Source: Maricaulis sp.
GTDB taxonomy: Bacteria; Pseudomonadota; Alphaproteobacteria; Caulobacterales; Maricaulaceae
Assembly: GCF_017642925.1 (NCBI RefSeq)
Contig: NZ_JAEPOL010000018.1
Coordinates: forward strand, 1 to 64,000
Reading direction: 5' to 3'
DNA: 64,000 bases
Below, one piece after another: positions 46,576-59,091 of this stretch. How positions within the stretch are numbered: the first letter of the stretch is position 1; every line of letters starts with the position of its first letter. The position numbers were made by a program, and so were the translations under genes. The notes beneath the pieces were generated by a model. It saw only the letters and a list, made by a program, of their open reading frames with translations. It ran no database searches and had not been told where the DNA came from.

Positions 46576-46607
46576 AGCGGCGGGGCCAGGCTCCGCCGCT
46601 TTTTTTT
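46576..46607 (+). terminator. Rho-independent terminator of the minimal chemoreceptor
   Basis: The stem AGCGGCGG/CCGCCGCT with a 9-base loop is followed by a run of eight Ts (46600-46607). Confidence 0.9.
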
Positions 46608-46683
46608 GTGCGCCGGAATATCTTTAAATTGTTGTTGTGATTTGATACAACTTTGACTCACTCGCTGAAAACGGGAGTGAGAT

Positions 46684-47340
46684 ATGCAACCGGAATCAAG
46701 GATCACAAAGGACGGCCTGACGGAAATCATCGTCGCGTCGGACAATACCGAGGACGTCATTGTCCGCTCATCGATCGGCTACACGCCGCAATACGTGACC
46801 GACGTCTATGGCCGCACAAAACGCGTCACCAAGGACGTGACCTTCGCCAAACTTCTGCGCCGCCTGAAACACGATCTGCCCGAGCACGAGCTCGTCAGTA
46901 TCGGTACGCCGGTCAATTTCAACATCGCCCCCACCCATCTGACGCGGGTGGAGATGCAGTTCGAGACCGATGACCAGGTCGAAAAATGCCTCAAGGAGAT
47001 CGGTGCGTCCGACATGATGATCCGGGCGCGGGTCCAGCCGGCCTGGGACTGGCAATCCCCCATGCTGCACGACCGCCACGTCGTCCTGCATGTCGGCTGG
47101 TATGACACCGTCTACTTCATGCAGTTCAAGGACATCTTTCTCGGCGACCTTCATTGCCGTTACTCGGCGAAATTCGATTTCGACCCCCGTGAGGCGAAGA
47201 TCACGCATTTCCGCTATGACGCGCACGGAGACCTCGAAGAAATCGGCGAGTTCAACGCCGCAGAGCGCGAGGCGGATGCCATCAAGGAAAAAGTGGAGTT
47301 CCTGCGGATATTCCGCGACGGGTCATCGGAAACGACTTGA
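46684..47340 (+). CDS. Unrecognised soluble protein
   Basis: A 218-residue protein that I cannot place. It is soluble, without a signal peptide, with alternating strands and helices. Aromatic and His-rich stretches such as WDWQSPMLHDRHVVLHVGWYDTVYFMQF lie near the middle (about 118-150), and a charged helix is at the end. The GGGAGTGAG site 6-12 bp before the ATG is a good start signal. The region reads as more AT-rich and less biased in codon use than its neighbours. It may be an acquired gene, next to the tRNA-linked patch at 47.9 kb. Confidence 0.75.
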   Translation: MQPESRITKDGLTEIIVASDNTEDVIVRSSIGYTPQYVTDVYGRTKRVTKDVTFAKLLRRLKHDLPEHELVSIGTPVNFNIAPTHLTRVEMQFETDDQVEKCLKEIGASDMMIRARVQPAWDWQSPMLHDRHVVLHVGWYDTVYFMQFKDIFLGDLHCRYSAKFDFDPREAKITHFRYDAHGDLEEIGEFNAAEREADAIKEKVEFLRIFRDGSSETT

Positions 47341-47419
47341 TACGCGCCGGTCTGAGGTGCGACTCTTCGCAATCGCGCCGCCGCACTGACGGCGGCCCGG
47401 TTGCCAGGAGATATGCAAG

Positions 47420-47830
47420 GTGCTCGTCGGAAAGCTCAGGGACGCGCCGCTCGAACCGGTCAGAAGCCGGTCAACGGCGGAGATTTTCACGCTCTACAAG
47501 TCTCTGTCGGAACCGGCCGGCATCGGCTCGGTATCCGTGATGTTCGAGACGCTCGCGCCGGGGCACCGCGCGTCCTCGCCGCATGTCCACAGCACCAGGG
47601 ACGAGTTCTATATCGTCCTGAAAGGGTCCCCGACCGTGCATTCGGGTACCCAAACCGCCACCCTCGCCCCCGGCGATTATGTCGCTTTTCCGGCCGGCCC
47701 AGGCGACTTCCACTACCTGCACAATCCCACCGACACGGAGGTCGAGCTGATCACGATCGCGTCCTGCCCGGACAATGATGTGATCGAGTATGCGCCGGTC
47801 GGGCCCGAAACGCGGGCCAGTGCGGAATAA
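47420..47830 (+). CDS. Cupin-domain protein
   Basis: A 136-residue single-domain cupin. The first motif is PHVHSTRDEFYIVLKG, with His-His-Glu metal ligands, and the second is GDYVAFPAGPGDFHYLHN. Starts with GTG at 47420, with AGGAG nearby. Single-domain cupins include isomerases, dioxygenases and regulators; nothing here picks one. It is 79 bp downstream of the unrecognised protein and may be co-transcribed. A tRNA-Arg fragment follows at 47900. Confidence 0.85.
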   Translation: MLVGKLRDAPLEPVRSRSTAEIFTLYKSLSEPAGIGSVSVMFETLAPGHRASSPHVHSTRDEFYIVLKGSPTVHSGTQTATLAPGDYVAFPAGPGDFHYLHNPTDTEVELITIASCPDNDVIEYAPVGPETRASAE

Positions 47831-47859
47831 CCCGCACACCCATTCCCCGCATCGCAGGC

Positions 47860-47888
47860 TTCAGCCGTCCGGAAAAACCGGCTAAGAC
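47860..47888 (+). promoter_or_regulatory. Possible old tRNA-Arg promoter
   Basis: TTCAGC (47860-47865), 17 bp, TAAGAC (47883-47888) lies 12 bp before the tRNA fragment. If active it would transcribe the fragment and run antisense into the Mrr-like gene. Confidence 0.35.
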
Positions 47889-47899
47889 GCCCGTCTGGC

Positions 47900-47940
47900 G
47901 GCCCCGTAGCTCAGCAGGATAGAGCAACGGATTCCTAATC
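47900..47940 (+). pseudogene. Broken tRNA-Arg(CCT), 5' half only
   Basis: GGCCCCGTAGCTCAG, the D-arm and AACGGATTCCTAATC up to the anticodon loop match tRNA-Arg with anticodon CCT. The sequence after 47940 departs from any tRNA; the T-arm and the 3' acceptor strand are missing. It differs from the intact tRNA at 48602 in several positions, so it is not a simple copy. It is probably the remnant of the resident gene after an insertion at the anticodon loop. Confidence 0.7.
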
Positions 47941-48025
47941 GGTGGGTTGGCGTCCGGAAGGGCGTTTTGGTTCAGCACCTTGGGATCGTGGCGGGGTCGA
48001 TGAGCACCGGATAGGTACCGAACCG

Positions 48026-48541
48026 CTAGTCCAGACCGCCGGACTCTCGTCGTTCGACGATGTTTCCGCTTTCGTCCCGTATTTCTACGGTTGTGCGCTC
48101 AGTCAGGCTGATACGCGCTACTTCAGTTTCTTTGACGAATATCCGCTCAAGAAACCGGGCCACATAGCTGTCCAATGAAGATCCCTCCTCGATTTCGAGT
48201 TGATCGATCTTTTCAGCCTCGGCGATCTGTTCGGCACCCTTCTGAAGACCGGACCGAGAGACCACGATACCCCCTTCGGCGTCGGCATCCTGAACGCGAT
48301 AGACGAAGCCGCCCATGGCCTCCCCCTCCATCGGCCTATTTCGGTTCTTGACCTCGATGAGCACGAAGTTGCCATTTTCGCGGTAGGCGACGACTTCCAC
48401 ATTTATTCGATCTCGGCCCGACCGTTTTCCAGCGACCGTCGCATCCCTCTCGACGTGAGTGAAACCCAGGCTCGCCTTGATATCGTCGATTATGCCGTAG
48501 GTGAGGTCCTCGTACGTCTTCCAGTCAGGGGTGTCTCTCAT
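48026..48541 (-). CDS. Mrr-like restriction endonuclease-fold protein
   Basis: A 171-residue protein with a PD-(D/E)xK-type nuclease core. The pattern is GRDRINVEVVAYRENGNFVLIEVKNRNRPM (about 42-71), with the ExK pair in IEVKN, followed by GGIVVSRSGLQKGAEQIAEAE, as in Mrr_cat enzymes (SRSGF...GA...A). A C-terminal acidic helical tail may be specific. There is no methyltransferase next to it. It lies alone between two tRNA-Arg sequences. Defence against foreign or methylated DNA is possible; activity is inferred from fold motifs only. Confidence 0.75.
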   Translation of the reverse strand: MRDTPDWKTYEDLTYGIIDDIKASLGFTHVERDATVAGKRSGRDRINVEVVAYRENGNFVLIEVKNRNRPMEGEAMGGFVYRVQDADAEGGIVVSRSGLQKGAEQIAEAEKIDQLEIEEGSSLDSYVARFLERIFVKETEVARISLTERTTVEIRDESGNIVERRESGGLD

Positions 48542-48554
48542 GGCGACCTACCAA

Positions 48555-48581
48555 TTGCGGAACGGGATGACCTTGTATACG
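48555..48581 (+). promoter_or_regulatory. tRNA-Arg promoter
   Basis: TTGCGG (48555-48560), 15 bp, TATACG (48576-48581) precedes the intact tRNA by 20 bp. It lies between the two tRNA sequences, so the element would carry its own promoter. Confidence 0.5.
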
Positions 48582-48601
48582 ACAGCCCTGCCGTTGTTTG
48601 G

Positions 48602-48678
48602 GTCCCCGTAGCTCAGGTGGATAGAGCACGAGATTCCTAATCTCGGGGCCGCAGGTTCGAATCCTGCCGGGGACACCA
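48602..48678 (+). tRNA. tRNA-Arg, anticodon CCT
   Basis: The 7-bp acceptor stem GTCCCCG (48602-48608)/CGGGGAC (48668-48674), the D-arm, the anticodon stem CGAGA/TCTCG around TTCCTAA, and the T-arm GCAGG-TTCGAAT-CCTGC all fold. CCA is encoded at 48676-48678. It decodes AGG. Confidence 0.95.
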
Positions 48679-48697
48679 GCCTTTCAAAATGGTGCGA

Positions 48698-48940
48698 CTA
48701 GTGCTTTCGGTCTTTCGGCGGGTTCGGGTCGTTTCCTGGCGGGACCGTGTCAGAGTCTCGCCAACGACCGTCACGGCCTTGAATACGCACCTCTCCGCCG
48801 CCAAGGTTCTTCACTATCTCCTTGGCTCGGCCTTCAGCTTCCTTCTGGGTCCGAAAAACCCCACTGGCACGCTCGGCTCCGCCGCCGGTGACGGCCCAGC
48901 CGTCGGCATGTTTCACAACGTATCGATCATTACCACTCAT
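48698..48940 (-). CDS. DUF2188 protein
   Basis: An 80-residue protein of the DUF2188 family. The visible signature is DRYVVKHADGWAVTGGGAERASGVFRTQKEAEGRAKEIVKNLGGGEVRIQGRDGRWRDSDT. Such proteins often lie in accessory regions and have no known role. The start at 48940 has GAGG 7 bp upstream; a Met at 48958 is an alternative. It adjoins the tRNA-Arg and points back towards it. It may belong to the same accessory patch. Confidence 0.87.
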   Translation of the reverse strand: MSGNDRYVVKHADGWAVTGGGAERASGVFRTQKEAEGRAKEIVKNLGGGEVRIQGRDGRWRDSDTVPPGNDPNPPKDRKH

Positions 48941-49074
48941 CAGCGACCTCATCTTCACACTGCAGACAGTATAATCGATTCAAGGACGGAACACAAAGAG
49001 AACAAACTCGCGCACCCCTCTGGCATTCTTCTTGCTCGCCTCGCAGGGGAAATCCCGGGAGGAGACAGCGCGCC

Positions 49075-59006: not shown

Positions 59007-59091
59007 TGGTGCCCCTGGTCAGACTCGAACTGACACTCCTTGCGGAAACGGATTTTGAATCCGTCGCGTCTACCAATTCCGCCACAGGGGC
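59007..59091 (-). tRNA. tRNA-Leu, anticodon CAA
   Basis: Read leftward it begins GCCCCTG, has D-arm GGAATTGGTAGAC, anticodon stem around TTCAAAA, a long variable arm typical of class II tRNAs, T-arm with TTCGAGT, and ends CAGGGGC-A-CCA. Encoded CCA is at the left end. It decodes TTG. Confidence 0.96.

What the first reader, a model, noticed from the sequence alone, without database searches (positions are those of the whole stretch)
47900..48678. tRNA-Arg(CCT) split by a 702-bp unit carrying an Mrr-like nuclease
A 5' half of a tRNA-Arg(CCT) stops at its anticodon loop (47940). An intact tRNA-Arg(CCT) lies 702 bp on, and both share GATTCCTAATC (47930-47940 and 48632-48642). The halves differ elsewhere, and the right copy has its own promoter inside the unit. 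This fits an element that inserted at the anticodon loop, left the resident 5' half broken, and supplied a replacement. The cargo is one orphan Mrr_cat-like nuclease and no integrase. A very small tRNA-targeted defence unit of this kind would be unusual.
Basis: partly seen in the sequence, partly recalled or inferred. Interest (0 to 1): 0.66.

Follow-up and report, generated by a model that had tools for sequence, protein, structure and literature searches.

The report
Foreign tRNA-Arg displacing a broken original
A short piece of foreign DNA cut a bacterial arginine-tRNA gene in half at its anticodon and brought a complete substitute, which looks like the worn-down remnant of a tRNA-targeting island, not a working miniature defence element.

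Summary
Against sister genome G018, which keeps the empty site, the resident tRNA-Arg(CCT) is conserved up to 47940 (88/89 identical) and broken there; homology resumes at 49019 (56/56). The foreign stretch is 47941-49018 (1078 bp, not 702), replacing 180 bp: the tRNA 3' half and 144 bp beyond. It holds an Mrr_cat-like ORF, an intact tRNA-Arg(CCT), a DUF2188 ORF and no detectable integrase. The intact tRNA is foreign in both halves (35/41 and 26/36 identical to the resident; 94% to another genus of the family), so it is not the host/element hybrid that integration normally leaves. It is the only intact tRNA-Arg(CCT) among 42 tRNA hits of the draft genome. Best reading: remnant of an island that recombined at the anticodon loop; its other end was later deleted, tolerated because it carried its own tRNA. 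A defence cassette is not supported: no copy of the nuclease in 136 other family or 384 other class genomes, no tRNA in the DNA held around 17 homologues, and Asn where 14 of 14 aligned homologues have Asp. The locus is hit repeatedly: G016 (same genus), G044 and G045 show related disruptions.

The parts
47832..47899 (+). Resident upstream (promoter) region of tRNA-Arg(CCT)
   Evidence: collinear with sister genome G018
47900..47940 (+). Orphan 5' half of the resident tRNA-Arg(CCT), ending at the anticodon loop/stem
   Evidence: identical to the intact resident tRNA in G018
47930..47940 (+). Shared GATTCCTAATC, left copy (presumed crossover core)
47941..49018 (.). Foreign stretch of 1078 bp replacing the resident 3' half (36 b) and 144 bp of intergenic DNA
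   Evidence: junctions against G018
48026..48541 (-). 171-aa Mrr_cat-like protein, N47 at the conserved Asp position
   Evidence: Pfam PF04471; alignment with 14 homologues
48542..48601 (.). Divergent gap between nuclease and tRNA; possible promoter, none found by scan
48602..48678 (+). Intact foreign tRNA-Arg(CCT) with CCA; only intact one found in the draft genome
48632..48642 (+). Shared GATTCCTAATC, right copy
48698..48958 (-). 86-aa DUF2188 protein (PADLOC candidate PDC-S16)
   Evidence: Pfam PF09954 E 1.2e-19; PADLOC E 9.4e-23
49019..49074 (.). Resident right flank up to the DUF418 start codon
   Evidence: 56/56 identical to G018

Best explanation
A tRNA-targeting integrative element recombined with the resident tRNA-Arg(CCT) at its anticodon loop and left the host 5' half as one attachment end (position of the break shown; use of an integrase inferred). 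The element, or donor DNA it had picked up, also carried a complete tRNA-Arg(CCT). Because that copy could serve the cell, the other end of the element, with its integrase, the distal attachment site, the host 3' half and 144 bp of host DNA, was lost in a later deletion ending at 49018 (inferred). What remains is a fixed scar with two small cargo ORFs. The foreign tRNA now decodes AGG, alone or together with tRNA-Arg(TCT) (inferred).
For: Exact junctions against the sister empty site. Insert G+C 0.573 against 0.661 for the window. The break lies at the anticodon loop, one of the crossover places listed for tRNA-targeted islands (PMC4383910, passages). In the same family, G044 carries a 3' fragment whose identity starts at ATTCCTAATC of the same tRNA, 1.8 kb from the intact copy, and G045 carries such a fragment with a similar-looking arm beside it; so elements that cross over at this loop exist in the family. 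The intact tRNA differs from the resident in both halves (35/41 and 26/36 identical), has complete stems (7/5/5 pairs; host-element hybrids would have 6/3/5 or 6/2/5) and is 94% identical to a tRNA-Arg(CCT) of another genus in the family, so it arrived whole. No other intact tRNA-Arg(CCT) among 42 tRNA hits of the 35-contig draft. tRNA-Arg(CCT) seems expendable: in one-contig G045, 39 of 42 tRNA hits were typed and none is CCT.
Against: No integrase, no second attachment site and no intact version of the element was found. Two events are needed where one capture might do. The 3' half of the intact tRNA should be the host's under simple integration, and it is not. G016 shows that this tRNA can also die by point mutation over its whole length, and ARAGORN still calls a tRNA over the left piece.
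Confidence: 0.55

Rival explanations
1. One-step capture without an integrase: foreign linear DNA (natural uptake or transduction) that carried a tRNA-Arg(CCT) was joined by end-joining or short-homology recombination, replacing 180 bp.
For: One event explains both exact junctions, the replacement of 180 bp, the wholly foreign tRNA and the missing integrase.
Against: The left join falls at the anticodon loop, a known crossover place, and elements that use this loop exist in the family.
Confidence: 0.27
2. The left piece is a full-length resident tRNA that decayed by mutation after the foreign tRNA arrived; the insertion point lies beyond it.
For: Anchored gapped similarity of the 40 bases after 47940 to the resident 3' half is marginal (1.3-2.8% of random positions reach it); ARAGORN calls a tRNA there; G016 shows such a state at the same locus.
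Against: The 5' half plus upstream is 88/89 identical while the 3' half is 15/36 ungapped; unanchored similarity is not notable (5% to 86% of random positions). Decay confined to one half is unlikely.
Confidence: 0.1
3. A live, very small tRNA-targeted defence element.
For: Mrr_cat-like ORF beside a tRNA piece, and a DUF2188/PDC-S16 ORF just after the intact tRNA.
Against: Nuclease found in none of 136 other family and 384 other class genomes; no tRNA in the DNA held around 17 homologues; DUF2188 seen near the nuclease in 1 of 15 homologue genomes or records, two further hits not placed; N47 instead of Asp; no recombinase.
Confidence: 0.05

Closest known systems
tRNA-targeted genomic islands of the 5'-fragment kind (Islander: 159 islands with a 5' tDNA fragment against 3760 with a 3' fragment; PMC4383910, passage)
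   Same: Displaced 5' fragment upstream of an intact tRNA in the same orientation; break at the anticodon loop.
   Different: 1.08 kb, no integrase; the intact tRNA is wholly foreign, not element 5' half plus host 3' half. Islander rejects candidates under 2 kb or without integrase, so it would not list this.
Small Mrr_cat-like proteins, several annotated 'restriction endonuclease', on plasmids of Streptomyces, Paraburkholderia, Hoyosella and others
   Same: Same small domain, 23-38% identity to the 14 aligned homologues.
   Different: Asn at the conserved Asp; EVK where 10 of 14 homologues read ECR and 4 read ECK.
Disrupted tRNA-Arg(CCT) loci in G016, G044 and G045 of the same family
   Same: Same tRNA; small cargo without integrase between tRNA pieces (G016, G044).
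   Different: Other cargo (NDP-hexose dehydratase and GT61; AAA/DUF4143); the G016 left copy is full length but mutated; G044 and G045 carry 3' fragments.

Membership tests
tRNA-targeted genomic island (Islander definition) | Displaced tDNA fragment and intact tDNA, same orientation, fragment on the proper side | tested here: met
   5' half upstream of the intact tRNA
tRNA-targeted genomic island (Islander definition) | Intact tRNA regenerated from one host part and one element part | tested here: not met
   both halves differ from the resident, 35/41 and 26/36; best stems only in the unmixed combination
tRNA-targeted genomic island (Islander definition) | Integrase gene inside | tested here: not met
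   six ORFs of the insert against Pfam: Mrr_cat, DUF2188, four without match
tRNA-targeted genomic island (Islander definition) | Length 2-200 kb | tested here: not met
   1078 bp
Mrr_cat restriction-endonuclease family | Match above Pfam gathering score | tested here: met
   24.5 bits against 21
Mrr_cat restriction-endonuclease family | Catalytic D...ExK residues (motif recalled) | tested here: inconclusive
   E63 and K65 present; N47 where 14 of 14 aligned homologues have Asp; nearby D44 might stand in
Mobile defence element | Same unit at other sites or in other genomes | tested here: not met
   nuclease in 1 of 137 family genomes and 1 of 385 class genomes, in both cases its own genome; 95 and 315 of these genomes are at least 90% complete
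Mobile defence element | Protection against phage or plasmid | not testable with these tools
   needs an experiment

The most novel reading that the evidence does not exclude
The tRNA-Arg(CCT) locus is a docking site for a class of very small, integrase-less cassettes that bring their own complete tRNA and are moved by integrases acting in trans; because the resident tRNA dies, the cell comes to rely on the cassette. The window and G016 would be two members, invisible to screens that demand an integrase and at least 2 kb.
Probability: 0.1. Interest if true: 0.65.

Novelty: new variant of a known kind. Interest (0 to 1): 0.36.

Why it matters
It is a clean case, with an empty-site control, of a resident tRNA gene displaced by a wholly foreign one with the old half left as a scar. 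It shows how tRNA genes can be swapped horizontally, and that scars of this size escape island screens that require an integrase and a length of 2 kb.

Tried and rejected
Searches without result: nuclease in phages, in viral contigs by protein and by alignment, in genome contigs by the single protein, in solved structures by a 7-row profile. Exact pattern of 38 bases of the right tRNA in viral contigs: 0. The right tRNA against phages and plasmids gave only tRNA-level similarity, all records below 90% identity (96 and 80 records). Single-sequence structure prediction of the nuclease was poor (mean pLDDT 38.8), so no fold search was made. Nuclease-DUF2188 pair as a module: 3 of 15 genomes or records of homologues have a DUF2188 hit; one (Rhodococcus plasmid) lies about 4 kb from the nuclease, the other two were not placed relative to it. 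Hybrid-tRNA model (element half plus host half) rejected on sequence and stems. Literature: the listings of searches showed no title or abstract start that describes this case, and one search returned nothing; these are six searches of one open-licence library, not proof of absence. I saw passages of PMC4383910 and its section 4, the abstract, outline and section 12 of PMC9897764 and passages of PMC8371274; the rest as listings only.

Full report
Observation. The window holds a 5' half of a tRNA-Arg(CCT) at 47900-47940 and an intact tRNA-Arg(CCT) at 48602-48678. Rfam finds the right copy at 68.9 bits and the left piece at 20.7 bits, below the gathering score of 29; ARAGORN nevertheless calls a tRNA-Arg(CCT) over the left piece, 47898-47990. 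Both share GATTCCTAATC.

Empty site. Of 18 other genomes of the genus searched, G018 (69% complete) is the closest at this locus. It has the same upstream DNA, one intact tRNA-Arg(CCT) and the same downstream DUF418 gene. Walking left from 47940 the two agree at 88 of 89 bases; in the 36 bases to the right of it at 15 of 36. Walking left from the DUF418 start codon they agree at 56 of 56 bases, back to 49019, and then not. The left contrast has Fisher p 3e-13. So 1078 bp (47941-49018) stand where G018 has 180 bp: the 36-base tRNA 3' half and 144 bp of intergenic DNA. The insert has G+C 0.573 against 0.661 for the window. ARAGORN calls a tRNA-Arg(CCT) in the loci of 16 of the 18 other genus genomes; loci of G007 and G013 were not given to it.

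The intact tRNA is foreign throughout. It matches the G018 resident at 35 of 41 bases in the 5' half and 26 of 36 in the 3' half; the listed full-length matches in the genus are 79-87%; the best in the family is 94% in another genus (G060, a tRNA-Arg(CCT)) and the best in the class sample 96% (G190). Its stems are complete (7 acceptor, 5 anticodon, 5 T pairs), as are the resident's; hybrids of the two lose pairs in the acceptor and anticodon stems. Classical integration would have left an element 5' half joined to the host 3' half. That is not what is seen. All 42 tRNA hits of the genome were accounted for: 30, 10, a tRNA-Tyr also shown by locus L043, and the tRNA-Leu at 59007. The right copy is the only intact tRNA-Arg(CCT); tRNA-Arg(TCT) is present. 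The genome is a draft of 35 contigs, so a further copy in a gap is not excluded. In 19 long high-GC3 ORFs of the window AGG makes 33 of 10311 codons (mechanical ORFs).

Cargo. The 171-aa ORF matches Mrr_cat. It was not found in 136 other family genomes or 384 other class genomes drawn from a larger group. Homologues lie on 15 plasmid records (26-41% identity, the 41% over 56 residues; 8 of 15 fetched) and in 9 genome loci (28-36%). None of the 17 homologue loci fetched (L102-L118) has a tRNA in the DNA held, which is 4 to 12 kb each. In an alignment with 14 of these 17 the window protein has N47 where all 14 have Asp; E63 is invariant; the next catalytic position is K in the window, R in 10 and K in 4 homologues. 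Of the other three, L109 also has Asp there; L106 and L108 were not aligned. The 86-aa ORF is DUF2188 and matches PADLOC candidate PDC-S16; DUF2188 occurs in 12 of 136 family genomes including this one, and the five further family loci that I scanned (L088-L091, L099) hold no tRNA. Four other ORFs of the insert match no Pfam family.

A recurrently hit locus. In G016 of the same genus, upstream DNA like that of congeners (up to 81% to G017) leads into a full-length but mutated tRNA-Arg(CCT), followed by an NDP-hexose 2,3-dehydratase and a glycosyltransferase-61 gene and then an intact tRNA-Arg(CCT), 2.4 kb on; four further ORFs between them match no Pfam family. In G044 an intact tRNA-Arg(CCT) is followed by an AAA_14/DUF4143 gene and a 3' tRNA fragment that begins at the anticodon loop. 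In G045 such a fragment was found without a full tRNA-Arg(CCT) beside it. Of the 42 tRNA hits of G045, 40 stretches were given to ARAGORN: 39 were typed, with Arg CCG, TCT and ACG but no CCT, and one (below the family cut-off) held no tRNA; two hits of 82 and 85 nt, lengths usual for long-arm tRNAs, were not examined. So this tRNA is a repeated target and probably not indispensable. That the arms of G044 and G045 are related is my reading, not a scored alignment.

Mechanism. Shown: exact break at the anticodon loop; loss of the host 3' half; a whole foreign tRNA; no detectable integrase. Inferred: integrase crossover in the loop, then deletion of the far end, tolerated because the element carried a complete tRNA. 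The chief rival is a single capture of foreign DNA by short-homology joining. A live defence cassette is unlikely.

Known. Islands that displace a 5' tDNA fragment are known but rare (159 against 3760 with a 3' fragment, PMC4383910, passage). This locus fails three of the four island criteria tested (hybrid tRNA, integrase, length), so I do not file it as an island, only as a probable remnant of one.

Noticed in passing
46605-47830: A 218-aa ORF without Pfam match and a cupin ORF, in DNA partly of lower G+C just upstream of the same tRNA, are absent from this place in sister G018.
   Followed up: partly
L007 1883-2026 (minus), L009, L010, L129 5356-5440: G+C-rich repeats (TCTCACGGCAGTCCGC and similar) follow the resident tRNA-Arg(CCT) in G018, G005, G001 and G016; they are not seen after the tRNA pieces in the window.
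   Followed up: no
L129 2840-5355 (G016): Parallel case in the genus: mutated tRNA-Arg(CCT), two sugar-metabolism genes, intact tRNA-Arg(CCT).
   Followed up: partly
L131 3695-3740 (G045): 3' tRNA-Arg(CCT) fragment in a one-contig genome in which no intact tRNA-Arg(CCT) was found among 39 typed of 42 tRNA hits.
   Followed up: partly
48698-48958: DUF2188 protein matching PADLOC candidate PDC-S16; function unknown.
   Followed up: partly
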